Positions 2,173 to 20,273 of a DNA stretch of 50,306 nucleotides are shown piece by piece (position 1 is the first letter of the stretch; every line of letters starts with the position of its first letter). The notes under the pieces are model-generated. The model was not told the DNA's origin, searched no databases, and worked only from the letters and a program-made list of their open reading frames with translations. The stretch is from a virus, in the IMG/VR virus record IMGVR_UViG_3300042383_000480, positions 1 through 50,306 of that record. One strand, written 5' to 3'. A program made the translations under genes and the position numbers.

Positions 2173-2180
2173 TATTTATC
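2173..2180 (-). promoter_or_regulatory. Late promoter motif GATAAATA before the left-end gene
   Basis: The minus strand reads GATAAATA, one base from the T4 late -10 element TATAAATA. It contains the TAA stop of terL, and only four bases separate it from the next ATG, so a transcript from it would have almost no leader. Confidence 0.55.
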
Positions 2181-4755
2181 CAAAATAAGATGAAACATAT
2201 AGAGGTAACGGTGGTTCCCATTCCTCGTTAGCTTGACCATTTACACTCAGCATATCCATCACAGTTGGATCCCATTCTGAAAGAATTTCACTCATACGAA
2301 TTACTAATAATGCTGCGGATACAAGGTCATCATGTTGTCCTGGCTTGGCTTTAAAGCTTACACCAGCAGCAATAAATGACTTCATTTCACTAAGTAACGC
2401 CCTGCTATTTACAACCATTTTATCTTCTTCTACTAAAAATTTTAGCCTAGAACATGCTGCAATCTTGTTATTAAAGGTTGTGTTAAAGCCCTTTCTAAAC
2501 TTTTTAACATGGCCTTTTCTTACTGGTTCACTTAGAAATAACCCTGGAAAAGTTTCTTCACCAAGGTCTGCTATAACAATTAAAGCAGCTTCACCAACTG
2601 TATTGTTTTCGGTTGACCAATAGATATTATTAGTATGTTCCATTCCAATTTCATCTTGGATATATCGTAATATGTCACGAAATAGTTTTACTTGTCCTTG
2701 AATAGGAGTAATATTATGCTGCCATTCTGCAATTTGTGTAAACGAAGGTAATTCAAACACTTGGATAGCACCATAATCACCACCAGTGCCCAAACTAGGA
2801 TCTAACGCAACCATATACAAATGATTTGGTGTTGGTTTTTTATACCATCTAACTTGTCCCATTTTGAATATCGGTTCTTTTCCAACCAATTCAGCTAATT
2901 TAAGACTGCTGATAAGTGTTTCGTCATATACCAAGAATTCACAATTATATTCTCGGCGAAAACGTTCTTCACCTATACGTCCAAGTTCTTCTTTTTTCCA
3001 ATTTTCATCACGGTCTGGATGATCCCACCACTCAGATTTAAACCCATGGAATCCATTTCGTCCTAAATTATTACCGGTTTCATCACCGAATTCATCAAAC
3101 ACATCTTGACTCTCTTTCCAAATAATAGCAAATTGGTCTTCATCAGAGTTAGGAGTGCTAGTAATAATAGCTCGTCCACCAGTTGCAAGGGTTGGGGAGA
3201 TTGATGTCCAAAATTCATTAGCAATATTTGGTTGCACGAACGCAAACTCGTCACAATAAAGTAATGAAATAGACATACCCCTACCGGTAGTGCCAGTTGT
3301 TGTTTGACTTACTATTCTTGATCCATTTTCAAACTCAATACTACCTTTATTATAACTTGTTACCCCGGCTCGTAGATAATCTGGACACAACTCATATCCA
3401 TATCTTATACGTTGCATAATTTCTTGTGCACCAGTGTACTTATGTGCTGCAACAAGAATTGTTTGATCTGGGTGGAACATTGCATACCATAACAAATATG
3501 CCGAAGCACAAGTTGTATTATGTGTTGGTATCATTGTTTTACCACATAAAAACATATGCTCATCATTATCAACTTGGATGCATCTTACTGGAACTGAAGA
3601 TGTTTTAGTGATTTTGTTTATGTATAATCTAGTGTTTTTTACATGGCCTTTGCACAATAACTGTCTTTCAGCTTTTCTTTTCAACTTAAACACTATATAT
3701 TTTGTTGTGGAAAATTTTAATGTATAATAATTCACACCATTTATAATTTTACAAGAACATCTTGACTTAATTCCAAGTGATGATAATATTGTCCTTACTT
3801 GTTCTATTAATTTAAAGTTCTTTTGATAAAATTCACAATTCCCTTTTTTTGTACAGCTTCCATCAGTATCCATCAATCCACGAAGTAATTCTAGCCGTTG
3901 ATCAATTGATGAGAACACATAATCAGTTGGTATATGTTTATTTTTTAATAGATTGTTTCCGTTCAATAATGTCCGTAGTCCTATAATGTTTCTACGTTCA
4001 CTATTATTGCTATTTACGGATGGTTCAGATACTGTATATCCAGATTCAGATATATATTGAATCATTTCTATATTATCTATATTTGATTGAACGTATCTAC
4101 CATCACCAGAATATCCATCACCAAGCCACAATCCTAATATATATGGATGAATTGGCAATGACTTATACTCGTATTGAACAGGTTCTGTAATATCTATATA
4201 TAATCCTTGTTCTAATGAATGCGTATCCTTATATTTTTTTATTTCATCAGTAGTAAGAATTTTTGATTTATTACTCCAATTTGCTGTACTAACTTTCCAT
4301 AAGTGTTCTGCATCCGCAATAATAGATTCTCCATTATCGAATTCTACTTCATAACATGTATGATTATACATAATTTCAGTAGCAAACGTAACAGTAGTGG
4401 GGTTTCCCATATTACTTAATATAATATCACCAACTTGAATATCACCCATAGTTGTCCAACCACTTGGTGTTGGAATGGGTGTATTTAGACTTAATGCTTT
4501 TCCACTTTGACGAGGTAGCATGTTGATATTAAATCGATAATTATGATAACTATTTAATAATCCTTCTTGGTACTCAAATGGTTCGAATAATAGCTTACCC
4601 TTAACTGAATGTTGTATATAAAAGAATTTTCTTGCAAAGTACAAGTATCCATTCTCTTGATCCATACACGCAAGCATATCCTGAATTTGAGATTCCGTCC
4701 ATTGTTGTTTTATGTGTGCTTTCTTAGTTAAAGCACCTTCGATTGATTTTGCCAT
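2176..4755 (-). CDS. terL: Terminase large subunit (gp17-like) interrupted by an intein
   Basis: This is the ATP-driven DNA packaging motor and headful nuclease. The precursor is 859 residues; removing the 327-residue intein leaves about 532, compared with about 610 for T4 gp17. Walker A is PRQSGK (81-86), continued after the intein by TT (414-415). Walker B is ISLLYCDEF, with D502 and E503, and the coupling motif is ITSTPN (531-536). The C-terminal RNase H-like nuclease has its acidic residues in MVALDPSLGTGGD (D652), STENN (E716) and GQHDDLVSAA (D809/D810). A terminator lies upstream of the start, and a weak TGTAAATA late-promoter-like motif ends 5 bases before the ATG, without a clear Shine-Dalgarno. 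Because the intein splits the ATP-binding loop, the motor should be inactive until splicing occurs. Confidence 0.97.
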   Translation of the reverse strand: MAKSIEGALTKKAHIKQQWTESQIQDMLACMDQENGYLYFARKFFYIQHSVKGKLLFEPFEYQEGLLNSYHNYRFNINMLPRQSGKALSLNTPIPTPSGWTTMGDIQVGDIILSNMGNPTTVTFATEIMYNHTCYEVEFDNGESIIADAEHLWKVSTANWSNKSKILTTDEIKKYKDTHSLEQGLYIDITEPVQYEYKSLPIHPYILGLWLGDGYSGDGRYVQSNIDNIEMIQYISESGYTVSEPSVNSNNSERRNIIGLRTLLNGNNLLKNKHIPTDYVFSSIDQRLELLRGLMDTDGSCTKKGNCEFYQKNFKLIEQVRTILSSLGIKSRCSCKIINGVNYYTLKFSTTKYIVFKLKRKAERQLLCKGHVKNTRLYINKITKTSSVPVRCIQVDNDEHMFLCGKTMIPTHNTTCASAYLLWYAMFHPDQTILVAAHKYTGAQEIMQRIRYGYELCPDYLRAGVTSYNKGSIEFENGSRIVSQTTTGTTGRGMSISLLYCDEFAFVQPNIANEFWTSISPTLATGGRAIITSTPNSDEDQFAIIWKESQDVFDEFGDETGNNLGRNGFHGFKSEWWDHPDRDENWKKEELGRIGEERFRREYNCEFLVYDETLISSLKLAELVGKEPIFKMGQVRWYKKPTPNHLYMVALDPSLGTGGDYGAIQVFELPSFTQIAEWQHNITPIQGQVKLFRDILRYIQDEIGMEHTNNIYWSTENNTVGEAALIVIADLGEETFPGLFLSEPVRKGHVKKFRKGFNTTFNNKIAACSRLKFLVEEDKMVVNSRALLSEMKSFIAAGVSFKAKPGQHDDLVSAALLVIRMSEILSEWDPTVMDMLSVNGQANEEWEPPLPLYVSSYFG
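3517..4497 (-). mobile_element. Class 3-type intein with LAGLIDADG homing endonuclease inside terL
   Basis: Precursor residues 87-413 (327 aa) interrupt the terminase Walker A loop exactly after the lysine. The intein starts ALSLNTPIPTPSGWTTMGD (block A, with Ala rather than Cys/Ser at position 1) and ends MIPTHN before a +1 Thr. It has the triad that defines class 3 inteins: Trp at block B position 12 (W153 in AEHLWKV), Cys at block F position 4 (C392 in VRCIQV) and Thr at block G position 5 (T411 in PTHN). Between the splicing blocks are two LAGLIDADG motifs, LGLWLGDGYS (207-216) and LRGLMDTDGS (291-300), both keeping the acidic residue, so the homing endonuclease may be active. The junctions are inferred by comparison with uninterrupted terminases. 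Confidence 0.93.
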
Positions 4756-9888: not shown

Positions 9889-12800
9889 TTATGCTTGACC
9901 AAGTTTAGCAATAGCGCCAGTATTTTCTAAACGTAATGGAATATAGATGAATTCCACTGCTTTTACTGGTTCGATTGCGATGTCAACATAAAGCTCATTT
10001 GCATCAATTCTTGATGGTGTATTGTTTGATGTATCACAAACTACCAAATAATCATATAATGCTCTTTGTCCTACCAATTCTAGTAAGAAGCTTTCAATTT
10101 GTTGTTTAATTTCATTTCTTGTAATAGTATCATTTGGTTCAAAAATATATGGTTTTGCAATTCTTGATAATTGTACACGTAAGTAAATTACTAATCGTGC
10201 AACATTGATACGATCTAATGAACTGGCCACTAATTGACGAGTTTTTTGTCCATAGTTAACTAACCCAGTACCAGAAATATATGTAATTGGATTAACATGG
10301 ATATTTGCCAATGTATCACGCTGTCCATTATTTAACGCAACTGATCTAAATTCCCCCTCAGCATCAATATAACCAACCGAAGATGCATTAGTAATACCAC
10401 CGCGTCTTACACCAGCTGGTGCAAACCAAGGATAACTTACATTATCACTTAATGCAATTGTACGTAGCATCATGTGGCTAGGTGGGACCGAAATGTGATT
10501 ACCAATATTATCAGTTGTATAACCCCATGGATAGAATACTCCAAGATATGGATCAGTTGAAACCAAACCATCTGCATTATCTTCCAATGCATTATTAATA
10601 TTATTACCCCAGTTACTTAATGTGGTAGCATCTGGTGTCAGTCTTGCTGGAGTATCACCGACAATAAATGCGGTTAAACCACGATCATAGTTCAGACTAA
10701 TTAAAGGTTTAATCAATTCCGAATACCCAGGAGCAGCAATTAAGTTAAAGACACGATTATCTTCATCTCTGATTTGTTGGTTGCTATTAACTAATTCAGT
10801 CAATGATTGTAATACAACAGTACGTTGTGCAATTCTTCCAAATGAACCAGATCCATCAGCTTGATTTGCTGCCTCACTAATCCAACGGTGTGGATAATAG
10901 TTAGACATCAACTCGTCATTGTTATAACGTTGATTATTGCTTAATACATCAATATAGTTGTAAACATATTTTTTAATATTGAATCCACTACGGCGAAGAT
11001 TCCATAACAACATACCTTTTGGATATAATGCTGGATTTGGTGCATCAGGATCTAAGAAATTACTTGTTAATAAGTCAACAATTGAACTTGGATTTGCTGA
11101 ACGGCCATTAGTATCCCATCTTGCATCATGGAATAGAACCCCATTTTCAGTAGTTTGATCCGAGTTATCAACCAATACCCATTGTTTAGTTAGATAATCA
11201 TATTTGTAAATCAATGGATAATTTTCTAAATCAGCTGTACTAATCCATAAATCACCATTTTTTAATTCAGTTAACCCATCAGATTGTGTAGTTGGAGCAG
11301 TTGCACTTACAATAGGACCTTGGCTATCAGTTGCACCAACACCATTACCTAAGTTTACATTACGATATCCAACCCATGTTGTACCATTGTGAACTAATAT
11401 ATCAACATCTTCAATATTACCGTTGTACCATAATTGACCATTTGCTGTTAAAGTAGTTGGTGCATTTGAACTTGCTGTTGCAAAAGATTTAGTTTTATCG
11501 GTTGATGAAACTGAAGACCAATTACTAGCAACATATGTACCAGCGATACCAGAAGGTGCTGCGTAGAAGTTTGCAGTAGAAGTTACTGAATATAATTTAG
11601 ATACTGGAGTATGTGATCCATCTACGAATGTAATTTCTCCACCTTTAATGTGGCTAATAACTACTTGATTAGTTGTTGTAGCAGATGCTACTACATTAGT
11701 AAATCCAGCTGCATTAATTTGGCTAACAATTGCTTCGATTACCGTCACCGCAGTATCTCCATTTGTAACAGTAAATGATAAAGATTTAGCAGAATCACTA
11801 TTTTCAGCAATTGTAAATGTATAGGTGTTTGCAGCAAATGTTGAATTTGTTACAATAGCAGATGTGACAGTTGTTGGTCCAACACTAGCACGGCGATACA
11901 ATTTAAAATCTGCATATTGTGGATGAACAATACTATTTTGAGTTACAGTAGCACCTGAATCATTATATTTAACATACATTGTGTTAATAGGTAAGTTAAT
12001 ACCTCCACCAATTGCGTCCAATCCATCAATAGCATCTATATTATTTGCATATAGTGATACAGTAGCCGGTGTCCACTGAGCTGCTTTAGAATTATATTGA
12101 TTCACAAACCAGTGTGCTCCAGAATTTGGAGTAGTTGTTTTAATCCAAACTGCACCAGAAGCAATTCCGTTGTTAGATCCAGTATTATCAATTGCTTTGA
12201 ATAATGGGATTTGTGTATGGGAACTAATTTGTAATGCTGGTGCTAAAAATGTTCCAGTAGTTTCACCAGTAGCTAAAATACCAGTTGCTATTGCAGCAGA
12301 TCCAGAAATTACTAAGTTTGGCCCAGTTGAGAATAATTGTAACTTATTATTTACAATACCAGCAGAAATCTTAGTAGTTGTTGTCTGTGCATTAATCGCA
12401 GTTACAAGTGTACTTAAATTTGTAACACTTGTCATGGTAATAGTTGTAGTATTGATTGTTAATGTATCAGATGATCCGACTGTTATTGCACTTTGAAGTT
12501 TTGAACCTTGCGCGGTTGGCCAACTTGCAACCCATTCGGTTGATCCAACTTCAACCCATTTAACACCAGATGCTGATGTTGTAATTGGTTTTTTAAACCA
12601 TAGATTAATAAGACCAGAGACTGCAACAATTGCATAACTACCGATTGCACCAAAACTAGCTTTTGGAGTATAATCTTGCCCAGCAAAATCAACAACATAA
12701 TTAGGATCAGTAATAACAGATGGTTTTTGGACAGTAAAAGATTGTCCACCTGCTACAGTAGCTGGATTTGCATCCCATTGAAAAATACCGTATTGAGTAT

Positions 12801-13224
12801 CAGCAGTATCAATCCACACGGTTCCATCTACTGGCAGACCGGCAGGTGCATCAGCAGATTCTTCAAGTTGTGATAAATCAATATCACCACGAACTACATA
12901 CGCACTATTGCTTACACCTAGAAAGCTGTATGCGGCTTGTAAACCATATTCGTTTAATTCACCAGCATGAACTGGATTATTGTTAGCATCAGTTTGGAAA
13001 ATCGGAGTTCCAAAAGTATCTGATAAATCTTTTTGGCTAGTCATTAAATAAACTTGACCAGCATTTGCTTTTAAAGTACCTGGTGCAATACCTGTACCTG
13101 AACCGTTTTGCTTATTTTCGGCAGAAGCAACAACGATTAATGGAACTGTACCCGGTGCGGAAGGGGTGTAAAAACTTTCGTCAATTACAGTAACGCTTAC
13201 GCCTGGTGATTGAAGTTGAGCCAT
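9889..13224 (-). CDS. 18: Contractile tail sheath protein (gp18-like), enlarged
   Basis: This is the sheath subunit that contracts to drive the tube into the host. At 1111 residues it is far larger than T4 gp18 (659). Residues 1-115 are the standard N-terminal part: SPGVSVTVIDESFYTPSAPGTVPLI at the start and NEYGLQAAYSFLGVSNSAYVVRGD further on. The C-terminal third is also standard, with SSLDRINVARLVIYLRVQLSRIAKPYIFEPND and ELYVDIAIEPVKAVEFIYIPLRLE forming the interlocking strands. About residues 120-680 hold extra surface-type domains rich in Thr/Ser/Asn, including repeated short W-x-x-x-T-T-x-W pieces and an Ig-like beta stretch. A GGAG ribosome site precedes the ATG. Such insertions probably decorate the outer sheath surface. 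Confidence 0.95.
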   Translation of the reverse strand: MAQLQSPGVSVTVIDESFYTPSAPGTVPLIVVASAENKQNGSGTGIAPGTLKANAGQVYLMTSQKDLSDTFGTPIFQTDANNNPVHAGELNEYGLQAAYSFLGVSNSAYVVRGDIDLSQLEESADAPAGLPVDGTVWIDTADTQYGIFQWDANPATVAGGQSFTVQKPSVITDPNYVVDFAGQDYTPKASFGAIGSYAIVAVSGLINLWFKKPITTSASGVKWVEVGSTEWVASWPTAQGSKLQSAITVGSSDTLTINTTTITMTSVTNLSTLVTAINAQTTTTKISAGIVNNKLQLFSTGPNLVISGSAAIATGILATGETTGTFLAPALQISSHTQIPLFKAIDNTGSNNGIASGAVWIKTTTPNSGAHWFVNQYNSKAAQWTPATVSLYANNIDAIDGLDAIGGGINLPINTMYVKYNDSGATVTQNSIVHPQYADFKLYRRASVGPTTVTSAIVTNSTFAANTYTFTIAENSDSAKSLSFTVTNGDTAVTVIEAIVSQINAAGFTNVVASATTTNQVVISHIKGGEITFVDGSHTPVSKLYSVTSTANFYAAPSGIAGTYVASNWSSVSSTDKTKSFATASSNAPTTLTANGQLWYNGNIEDVDILVHNGTTWVGYRNVNLGNGVGATDSQGPIVSATAPTTQSDGLTELKNGDLWISTADLENYPLIYKYDYLTKQWVLVDNSDQTTENGVLFHDARWDTNGRSANPSSIVDLLTSNFLDPDAPNPALYPKGMLLWNLRRSGFNIKKYVYNYIDVLSNNQRYNNDELMSNYYPHRWISEAANQADGSGSFGRIAQRTVVLQSLTELVNSNQQIRDEDNRVFNLIAAPGYSELIKPLISLNYDRGLTAFIVGDTPARLTPDATTLSNWGNNINNALEDNADGLVSTDPYLGVFYPWGYTTDNIGNHISVPPSHMMLRTIALSDNVSYPWFAPAGVRRGGITNASSVGYIDAEGEFRSVALNNGQRDTLANIHVNPITYISGTGLVNYGQKTRQLVASSLDRINVARLVIYLRVQLSRIAKPYIFEPNDTITRNEIKQQIESFLLELVGQRALYDYLVVCDTSNNTPSRIDANELYVDIAIEPVKAVEFIYIPLRLENTGAIAKLGQA

Positions 13225-18069: not shown

Positions 18070-18500
18070 CTGATAAGATTGTGTGCAGTGGAGCATTGTT
18101 TTATTCAATATCTACTAGACGATTTTTATTAGTTCAAAAAGCAAGAGGAAAACATAACGGGACATGGGGGTTAGTTGGTGGTACAAATTTAGCTAACGAA
18201 AACCCGTGGCAAGGATTACAAAGAGAAATTATTGAAGAGATAGGGGTTGAGCCAGTCATAATCAAAACAATACCAATTGAAACATTTGTATCCAACGACA
18301 CTGTGTTTAATTTTCACACATTTTTATGTGTTATAGACAATGAGTTCATTCCTACGTTAAGTGATGAACACTGCGGATGGGCTTGGTGTACTATTGAATT
18401 AGCACCCAAGCCTCTTCACCAGGGGTTGAAAAATAGTTTTTCTAATAAGATAATTAGAACCAAACTCCAAACTATTTTTGATATTATTGACTTAATCTAA
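18051..18500 (+). CDS. Nudix hydrolase
   Basis: This 149-residue pyrophosphohydrolase has a perfect Nudix box GX5EX7REUXEEXGU: G44, E50, then REIIEEIGV at 58-66, whose glutamates bind the catalytic metal. The substrate could be a nucleotide-sugar, a dinucleotide, an oxidised dNTP or an mRNA cap-like end; the sequence does not decide. The C-terminal WAWCTIELAPKPLHQGLKNSF is like GDP-mannose or ADP-sugar type enzymes. Its start lies inside the end of gene 15, so translation is probably coupled. Its 3' end meets the glycosyltransferase gene tail to tail with nine bases of overlap, and no terminator is visible between them. Confidence 0.93.
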   Translation: MALSTITDKIVCSGALFYSISTRRFLLVQKARGKHNGTWGLVGGTNLANENPWQGLQREIIEEIGVEPVIIKTIPIETFVSNDTVFNFHTFLCVIDNEFIPTLSDEHCGWAWCTIELAPKPLHQGLKNSFSNKIIRTKLQTIFDIIDLI

Positions 18501-20273
18501 ATCCCAATCTTCGCCATGTAAAAATTCTACATTAGTTTGTTTGAAGAAGGTTGTGTAATACTTAATTTTTTGTTCATAAAATTCTATATTATCAAAAAAT
18601 CTTTCATGAAATTCTACGTATATTTTATCAAAATAATTGTATACGTTAGATGATATAATATCATCCAACACCTTAAATTCACTACCTTCAATATCCAATT
18701 TAAGAATTATACGATGCGAATTATCAAATTTATTGATAATAAAATCTGAAAATTTTATAGCCCCAATCATTAGTTGGGCATCATTATATAAAAATTGATC
18801 ATTGTATTTTATATCTTTTTCAGGGGGGTTTTCTAACACATTAGACCCTAAATGTGTATAATCATTGGTATATGTATAAGCACAATTCACAGTTACTAGT
18901 TCAGTTTTATCATAAACTGCTTTATTTAAATGCGTAATGTTAAATCCAGCACTGATATATTGGTTATATATTTCGTTTGATTTTTGATATACATATGGGT
19001 TAGCTTCAAATGCATAACATTCCCATGTTGAATTAATATTATACTTTTTAACAAATTGAGAAAATCCTTGAAACATATGCGTACCACAATCTATATATAC
19101 ATTTTTTCTTTTTTGTTCTAGTATTGGATAGATATAATCTTGGACTGGGTACTGTTTTCTTAACCAGTCTAATTCATCACGAGTATCATTTGGTTCATAC
19201 CACCCTTTACCAGTATATATATTCAATACTGATTGAAAATATTCTTCATACATTTTTGCGACACGGTTCATCGAAAAATTATTCATAGCCCAATCTCTAC
19301 AATTTTGTGGGTTTATTCTATCAATATTTTTTGCTGCCCAAGTAAATTGTTCAAATGTTCTGCATCGATACCCAGTTACCCCATGAATGTTATTTTCCGT
19401 GAATGCACCCCAATCAGTTGTGATAGTTGGCGTACCAGAGAACAAACATTCAACTTGTACGCCACCAAATGGCTCATTATACATACTAGCAACGAATGCG
19501 CCTTTTGCATTAGCCATAAGTTCACGGCGTGTCTCAACATCTGCATATCCAATTACATCCACATGGTCTGGGATCACGTCATAACCACAATCTTGTAATG
19601 AATTTTGTCCTGCAACTTTTAATCTTGCACCAATTTCTTTAGTTGCTTGGATAGCAATATGGATGCCTTTACCTTCATAAACACGCCCAATGAATAAGAA
19701 ATAATCTTCTTTAGTATCTTTGTATGTGAAATCATCTGGATCAAAATAATTAGGAATTACAACATCATACCAATCTTGTTTACATGTCCCAACAGACTCT
19801 AATCCGTAATATGCATGATATATTGCGTATGATTCAAAAATTTTAAACCTAGCCCAATGGCCACCTGAATAACCGATCCCTGGTTCAACACAAATTAAAT
19901 CGGGATGTGCATCACAAATCGTGCGTACACCTGAACCCCAGAATGGTAGAATAAAATCATTTTTTTGTTTTCTTGTTTGAATTTCATTTATTGCATTTTT
20001 ATAAAACGTTTGATATGCATGATCACCTAAATCATATTTAAAAAAATGCTTCCGCCAATCATGATTACCGTAAGATACTTTCCAATCGACTGATGACAAT
20101 ACCGTCACATGCTCAGTGCAGGTGAGATCGGATTCTTCATGCCCATAATGAATAACTGTGTGACCGATCTCCGTCATCATTTTACAGAACTTAACTACTT
20201 TTTGAGTATACGCACATGCGATGTACTCTCTACTGGATACCGTATGTGGTAATCCCAATACATGAAATCTCAT
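18492..20273 (-). CDS. Glycosyltransferase (GT4-type) fused to FkbM-type methyltransferase
   Basis: This is a bifunctional 593-residue enzyme. Residues 1-345 are a GT-B glycosyltransferase: FLFIGRVYEGKG (193-203), the domain-closing GYADVETRRELMANAKGAFVAS, and the retaining-enzyme pair E267-x7-E275 in EPFGGVQVE, followed by SGTPTITTDWGAFTE. Residues about 390-593 are a SAM-dependent FkbM-family methyltransferase: NVYIDCGTHMFQGF, CYAFEANPYVYQ and LKLDIEGSEFKVLDDI. Together they could add and O-methylate a sugar. AAGGAG precedes the ATG. An exact sigma-70 promoter covered by a palindrome lies upstream, along with a late-like motif. Possible targets are the neighbouring Thr/Ser-rich fibres or the host surface. 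It has no signal peptide or membrane helix. Confidence 0.92.
   Translation of the reverse strand: MRFHVLGLPHTVSSREYIACAYTQKVVKFCKMMTEIGHTVIHYGHEESDLTCTEHVTVLSSVDWKVSYGNHDWRKHFFKYDLGDHAYQTFYKNAINEIQTRKQKNDFILPFWGSGVRTICDAHPDLICVEPGIGYSGGHWARFKIFESYAIYHAYYGLESVGTCKQDWYDVVIPNYFDPDDFTYKDTKEDYFLFIGRVYEGKGIHIAIQATKEIGARLKVAGQNSLQDCGYDVIPDHVDVIGYADVETRRELMANAKGAFVASMYNEPFGGVQVECLFSGTPTITTDWGAFTENNIHGVTGYRCRTFEQFTWAAKNIDRINPQNCRDWAMNNFSMNRVAKMYEEYFQSVLNIYTGKGWYEPNDTRDELDWLRKQYPVQDYIYPILEQKRKNVYIDCGTHMFQGFSQFVKKYNINSTWECYAFEANPYVYQKSNEIYNQYISAGFNITHLNKAVYDKTELVTVNCAYTYTNDYTHLGSNVLENPPEKDIKYNDQFLYNDAQLMIGAIKFSDFIINKFDNSHRIILKLDIEGSEFKVLDDIISSNVYNYFDKIYVEFHERFFDNIEFYEQKIKYYTTFFKQTNVEFLHGEDWDLD

What the first reader, a model, noticed from the sequence alone, without database searches (positions are those of the whole stretch)
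3517..4497. Class 3 intein splitting the Walker A loop of the terminase
The intein lies between the P-loop lysine (PRQSGK) and the following TT, starts with Ala and has +1 Thr. It carries the class 3 triad: Trp (B:12), Cys (F:4), Thr (G:5). Class 3 inteins are a known minority with a proposed phage origin, but one in a T4-like terminase with two intact LAGLIDADG motifs looks uncommon. Because the ATPase cannot bind ATP until splicing, packaging is tied to splicing.
Basis: partly seen in the sequence, partly recalled or inferred. Interest (0 to 1): 0.8.

Follow-up and report, generated by a model that had tools for sequence, protein, structure and literature searches.

The report
Mobile class 3 intein in phage terminase
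A T4-like environmental phage carries a self-splicing, self-copying protein insert (an intein) in the ATP-binding loop of its DNA-packaging motor; the insert belongs to a common, known kind, but relatives show unusually clear sequence traces of it having recently jumped between phages.

Summary
TerL (gp17-like, 859 aa, 2176-4755 minus) contains a 327-aa intein at residues 87-413 (window 3517-4497), between the Walker A lysine and Thr-Thr. It has Ala1, the class 3 triad Trp67/Cys306/Thr325 (precursor 153/392/411), His65, His326-Asn327 and Thr+1. An AlphaFold2 model matches solved class 3 DnaB inteins (Z 22, 1.4-1.7 A) plus a two-motif LAGLIDADG endonuclease. It is not rare: same-site relatives occur in RaK2/K64-1, Krischvirus and cyanophages; one capped scan found at least 588 relatives, and all of the 80 best sit at this site. 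New here: direct traces of homing. The intein is 99% identical at DNA level in phages whose exteins are synonymously saturated. L017 has exteins close to L023's, but the window's intein, with a short donor-type tract on both sides (P=7e-6), as co-conversion predicts. Empty, active, decayed and class 1 split inteins share this one site within the clade. Some relatives' TerL genes are fractured into up to four ORFs by three split inteins. Splicing is necessarily required for the P-loop. No evidence shows that it regulates packaging; a conserved Cys48-Cys306 pair, a redox trap in mycobacterial DnaB, makes that testable.

The parts
2176..4755 (-). terL (T4 gp17-like large terminase) precursor, 859 aa
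4498..4755 (-). N-extein, residues 1-86, ending PRQSGK (Walker A Lys)
3517..4497 (-). class 3 intein, 327 aa, ALSLN...MIPTHN (precursor residues 87-413)
4297..4299 (-). Trp153 (intein Trp67), triad position B:12
3580..3582 (-). Cys392 (intein Cys306), triad position F:4, inferred branch-point nucleophile
3523..3525 (-). Thr411 (intein Thr325), triad position G:5
3517..3522 (-). His-Asn (intein His326-Asn327), C-terminal cleavage
3514..3516 (-). Thr414, +1 nucleophile and Walker A Thr of the spliced TerL
4354..4356 (-). Cys134 (intein Cys48), partner of the redox trap in M. smegmatis DnaBi1; Cys in 62 of 70 distinct same-site inteins
4114..4140 (-). LAGLIDADG motif 1 (ILGLWLGDG), catalytic Asp213 (intein Asp127)
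3859..3888 (-). LAGLIDADG motif 2 (LRGLMDTDG), catalytic Asp298 (intein Asp212)
2179..3516 (-). C-extein, TTCASAY...: rest of ATPase (Walker B LLYCDEF) and RNase H-like nuclease, uninterrupted here

Best explanation
This is a full-length, mobile class 3 intein. After translation its Hint domain excises itself: Cys306 (precursor Cys392) attacks the Lys86-Ala87 bond, the acyl group passes to Thr+1, and Asn327 cyclises. This joins GK to TT and so makes the Walker A loop whole. The embedded LAGLIDADG endonuclease cuts uninterrupted terL genes at the P-loop DNA during co-infection, and repair copies the intein in together with a few tens of flanking bases. The element is best seen as a selfish homing gene parked in an essential, conserved codon pair. 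Shown: anatomy, predicted fold, conserved triad, intact endonuclease acids, uninterrupted alleles, recent lateral transfer and a co-conversion tract in a relative. Inferred: chemistry of splicing, DNA cleavage and cut position.
For: Alignment to class 3 DnaB inteins over both splicing halves, E about 1e-30. Model pLDDT 87, pTM 0.84; Z 22 and rmsd 1.4-1.7 A to 6bs8/6riy, Z 26-28 to PI-SceI, LAGLIDADG I-DmoI also matched. WCT, His65, His326 and Asn327 in 87 of 87 same-site inteins; both endonuclease Asp in 80 of 87. Intein synonymous difference 0.015 and 0.045 against L014 and L017, while flanking exteins differ by 0.55 and 0.48. L017 exteins are 88-92% identical at DNA level to L023's, but its intein is 73.6% identical to L023's and 98.6% to the window's. 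Co-conversion: within 30 nt of the insert, window-L017 mismatches are 2/60 versus 91/459 beyond (P=6e-4), and L017-L023 mismatches 16/60 versus 29/459 (P=7e-6). Endonuclease pN/pS 0.10 against L018. The TerL tree needs at least 8 occupied/empty changes.
Against: No splicing or cleavage was measured. The close relatives' sequences come from metagenome contigs. The co-conversion case rests on one contig, L017; its left junction is repeated in the independent assembly L013, which may itself be a chimera. L014 shows no such tract.
Confidence: 0.92

Rival explanations
1. The intein is a regulatory switch: splicing is held back by a signal, for example oxidation pairing Cys48 with the catalytic Cys306, so DNA packaging starts only when conditions or timing are right.
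For: The P-loop is broken in the precursor. M. smegmatis DnaBi1, one of the closest solved relatives, forms a Cys48-Cys118 disulfide that blocks splicing. The equivalent Cys48 is present in 62 of 70 distinct same-site TerL inteins.
Against: Uninterrupted, class 1 and split alleles occur in the same phage clade. Cys48 is needed for splicing itself in DnaBi1, so its conservation has another explanation. Cys48 is missing in RaK2 and nine other loci.
Confidence: 0.1
2. The near-identity of the intein across phages reflects whole-terL or long-segment recombination rather than endonuclease-driven homing.
For: Phages recombine readily; L013 joins an L017-like left half to a window-like right half.
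Against: In L014 and L017 only the intein, plus in L017 tens of bases, is shared; both exteins are diverged by about 15-28% at DNA level.
Confidence: 0.06
3. The insert is a terminase-specific domain or a non-splicing remnant.
For: None found.
Against: Precise insertion between Lys and Thr, many uninterrupted relatives, all splice residues invariant.
Confidence: 0.02

Closest known systems
TerL inteins of Klebsiella phages RaK2, K64-1 and relatives (PMC5259590)
   Same: Same site GK|TT in a T4-like jumbo-phage TerL, class 3 triad, LAGLIDADG domain; 40-44% intein identity
   Different: Only distantly similar in sequence; RaK2 has Met instead of Cys48. No homing evidence is given for them in the papers read.
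TerL1-a intein site of mycobacteriophages (PMC5050341)
   Same: Inserted between the invariant Walker A Lys and Thr of a large terminase
   Different: Other terminase family (Terminase_1).
Class 3 DnaB inteins MsmDnaBi1 (6bs8) and MchDnaB1 (6rix, 6riy)
   Same: WCT triad, Ala1, DxxH, Cys48, P-loop host site (reported for MsmDnaBi1); 46-47% identity in the Hint domain, rmsd 1.4-1.9 A
   Different: Solved forms lack an endonuclease and come from a helicase; MsmDnaBi1 has Ser+1.
Inteins in Krischvirus gp17 (ECD7, Makalu_002) and Synechococcus phage B23 terminase
   Same: Same site and class, 36-48% identity
   Different: Distant phage hosts; some records label the gene 'replicative DNA helicase DnaB'.

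Membership tests
Class 3 intein | No Cys/Ser/Thr nucleophile at position 1 | tested here: met
   Ala1; Ala in 81 of 87 same-site relatives
Class 3 intein | WCT triad: Trp B:12, Cys F:4, Thr G:5 | tested here: met
   Trp67, Cys306, Thr325 align with DnaBi1 Trp67, Cys118, Thr137; 87 of 87 (loci were found with patterns that contain the Trp and the Cys, but the loci found by TerL similarity were not)
Class 3 intein | Block B His, block G His-Asn, +1 Cys/Ser/Thr | tested here: met
   His65, His326, Asn327, Thr+1
Class 3 intein | Hint fold | tested here: met
   Predicted model: Z 22, rmsd 1.4-1.7 A to 6bs8 and 6riy
Class 3 intein | Branched thioester on F:4 Cys; splicing activity | not testable with these tools
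   needs expressed precursor
LAGLIDADG homing endonuclease | Two motifs with catalytic acids, LAGLIDADG fold | tested here: met
   Asp127 and Asp212; LAGLIDADG_3 over cut-off; I-DmoI and PI-SceI folds
LAGLIDADG homing endonuclease | Genetic trace of homing (uninterrupted alleles, transfer, co-conversion) | tested here: met
LAGLIDADG homing endonuclease | Site-specific DNA cleavage | not testable with these tools
   needs purified protein
T4-like large terminase gp17 | Split Walker A restored on excision, Walker B, RNase H-like nuclease, T4-type neighbours | tested here: met
   Terminase_6N and 6C, gp17 structures; gp15, tail sheath, gp20 and gp23 homologues in the window

The most novel reading that the evidence does not exclude
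TerL splicing is a redox- or timing-controlled checkpoint: the conserved Cys48-Cys306 pair lets the intein hold the packaging ATPase off until the cell is suitably reduced, so that the selfish element has become a packaging switch in this phage clade.
Probability: 0.08. Interest if true: 0.7.

Novelty: new member of a known kind. Interest (0 to 1): 0.38.

Why it matters
The intein itself is ordinary. What is useful is the natural experiment around it. One clade of environmental phages shows one insertion site in every state (uninterrupted, active, decayed, replaced by a class 1 split intein), and one pair of relatives preserves a co-conversion tract of tens of bases. This makes the homing cycle of class 3 inteins, and competition between inteins for one codon pair, directly testable with known donor and target sequences.

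Tried and rejected
1. I first read the separate CBB_274/CBB_275 terminase genes as a split intein, because the tblastn match began at residue 395. Reading the proteins showed that CBB_275 has an uninterrupted GKTT loop, so that idea is withdrawn; Agrobacterium phage Atu_ph07 is split. 2. L013 as proof of recombination: rejected, since a contig joining an L017-like left half to a window-like right half through a shared intein is what a chimeric assembly looks like. 3. Co-conversion in L014: tested, not seen. 4. Rarity of the intein: rejected. 5. A first tblastn script failed for a wrong option and returned no hits; repeated correctly. A tree script failed on a naming error; repeated. In one search the rows for L018-L022 were out of frame and are not used; one search gives the right values. 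6. Three papers on class 3 and split inteins were not held, so the priority of the fractured TerL arrangement could not be checked in full.

Full report
WHAT IS THERE. The window is a 50,306-base viral contig (IMG/VR record). Its minus-strand ORF 2176-4755 encodes an 859-aa T4 gp17-like large terminase. Neighbouring genes include homologues of the T4 tail-sheath stabiliser gp15, a tail sheath C-terminal domain, capsid gp23 and portal gp20. Residues 87-413 are inserted exactly between the Walker A lysine and Thr-Thr; T4 gp17 aligns on both sides and joins at 87|414.

THE CLASS. Both ends of the insert align with crystallised class 3 DnaB inteins of Mycobacterium. Published positions of M. smegmatis DnaBi1 are Trp67, Cys118, Thr137, His65 and Asp62 (PMC6195587); here they are Trp67, Cys306, Thr325, His65 and Asp62. 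Position 1 is Ala, the last residues are His-Asn and +1 is Thr. Across 87 TerL inteins at this site the triad, His65 and His-Asn are invariant. Part of that set was found with patterns that contain the Trp and the Cys, but the members found through TerL similarity alone agree. An AlphaFold2 model of the intein with 30 flanking residues on each side (pLDDT 87, pTM 0.84) matches 6bs8 and 6riy at Z 22 with rmsd 1.4-1.7 A, and PI-SceI over the whole length at Z 26-28.

NOT RARE. The same-site intein is found in RaK2, K64-1, fENko-Kae01, Krischvirus ECD7-like phages, Synechococcus phage B23 and Alishewanella phage Slicko01. A capped scan of viral contigs returned at least 588 relatives, and all of the 80 best are at TerL GK|T/S. 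Published work reports that 82.5% of 1701 class 3 inteins have LAGLIDADG motifs (PMC7891396), that the TerL1-a inteins of mycobacteriophages sit at this same Lys|Thr spot (PMC5050341), and that the RaK2 and K64-1 terminases hold an intein with a LAGLIDADG domain (PMC5259590).

HOMING. The window intein is about 99% identical in DNA to those of L014-L017, while the exteins around it are 72-85% identical. Intein synonymous difference is 0.015 (L014) and 0.045 (L017), against 0.55 and 0.48 in the flanking exteins. L017 and L023 are sister sequences on the TerL tree: their exteins are 88-92% identical, but their inteins only 73.6%, and L017 lacks two further inteins that L023 has. Bases that tell the window from L023 switch to window type mainly next to the L017 intein, from about 28 nt left to about 54 nt right of it. 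With fixed 30-nt flanks, window-L017 mismatches are 2/60 near and 91/459 far (P=6e-4), and L017-L023 mismatches 16/60 near and 29/459 far (P=7e-6). This is what co-conversion during homing predicts. L013, from another metagenome, repeats the left junction, although L013 itself may be a chimera. The endonuclease is under constraint between the window and L018 (pN/pS 0.10). L027 has lost both catalytic Asp (LGAG and DSIG) but keeps all splicing residues, as expected for the decay phase of a homing cycle.

ONE SITE, SEVERAL GUESTS. On the tree of 91 TerL exteins, 53 are uninterrupted at the P-loop, 33 carry class 3 and 5 carry class 1 inteins, with at least 8 changes of occupancy. The class 1 guests include split inteins (L066, L164, L188, Atu_ph07) and, outside the tree, a mini-intein in Vibrio phage VPALA. 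Further split inteins interrupt Walker B (LLY|CDEF) and RE(Y/F)N|CEF. In L066/L067 all three sites hold split inteins, so TerL is encoded in four ORFs with endonuclease-like genes between the pieces at two of the sites.

MECHANISM. Inferred from class 3 chemistry (PMC7891396; PMC6195587): Cys306 attacks the Lys86-Ala87 bond, the acyl group moves to Thr+1, Asn327 cyclises, and GK is joined to TT. Because the Walker A loop is split in the precursor, TerL should not bind ATP before splicing. That is a dependency, not evidence of regulation. A regulated version is testable: the Cys48 that locks DnaBi1 by a disulfide to its catalytic cysteine, called non-conserved in that paper, is present here and in 62 of 70 distinct same-site TerL inteins. 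Since Cys48 is also needed for splicing in DnaBi1, its conservation does not by itself show a switch.

VERDICT. Observation confirmed; class assignment confirmed at sequence and predicted-fold level; rarity not supported; regulation unproven. New member of a known kind, in an evolutionary setting that shows homing unusually directly.

Noticed in passing
L066:1225-6216 and L067 (same coordinates; also L159, L160): TerL is fractured into four ORFs by three split inteins (P-loop class 1, Walker B, REFN|CEF), with endonuclease-like genes between pieces at the first two sites; full-length TerL would need three trans-splicing reactions. Each N-intein piece is only about 36-40 aa, like the published atypically split TerL inteins.
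   Followed up: partly
L023:3001-8441 (also L026, L161, L162): Class 3 cis intein at the P-loop plus split inteins at Walker B and REYN|CEF with free-standing endonuclease-like genes (one is DUF7487).
   Followed up: partly
L163-L178: Split inteins at Walker B (LLY|CDEF) are widespread in this TerL clade; L178 has a contiguous 462-nt version with no stop, a possible cis form of the split ones.
   Followed up: partly
L009:797-2988 (Agrobacterium phage Atu_ph07): The two annotated terminase genes are the halves of one TerL divided at the P-loop by a split class 1 intein (Ser1, ...LSHN|TT).
   Followed up: yes
L072:3211-5418 (also L073-L075, L078): Class 3 mini-intein beginning with Pro at the P-loop, plus a second, LAGLIDADG-containing intein further along the same TerL.
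   Followed up: partly
L123, L155, L156: Inteins with the full class 3 triad but Ser at position 1: a natural test of whether position 1 can regain a nucleophile.
   Followed up: no
Escherichia phage records PP400778, PP358550, PQ306574: TerL genes are labelled 'replicative DNA helicase (DnaB)', probably because annotation matched the DnaB-like intein inside them.
   Followed up: no
L013: Contig with L017-like sequence upstream and window-like sequence downstream, switching inside the shared intein: chimera or recombinant.
   Followed up: partly
window 18492-20273 (-): Glycosyltransferase plus FkbM methyltransferase fusion lying among virion structural genes.
   Followed up: no
window 9889-13224 (-): Very long (1111 aa) tail sheath protein with a flagellin-hook IN motif besides the sheath C-terminal domain.
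   Followed up: no
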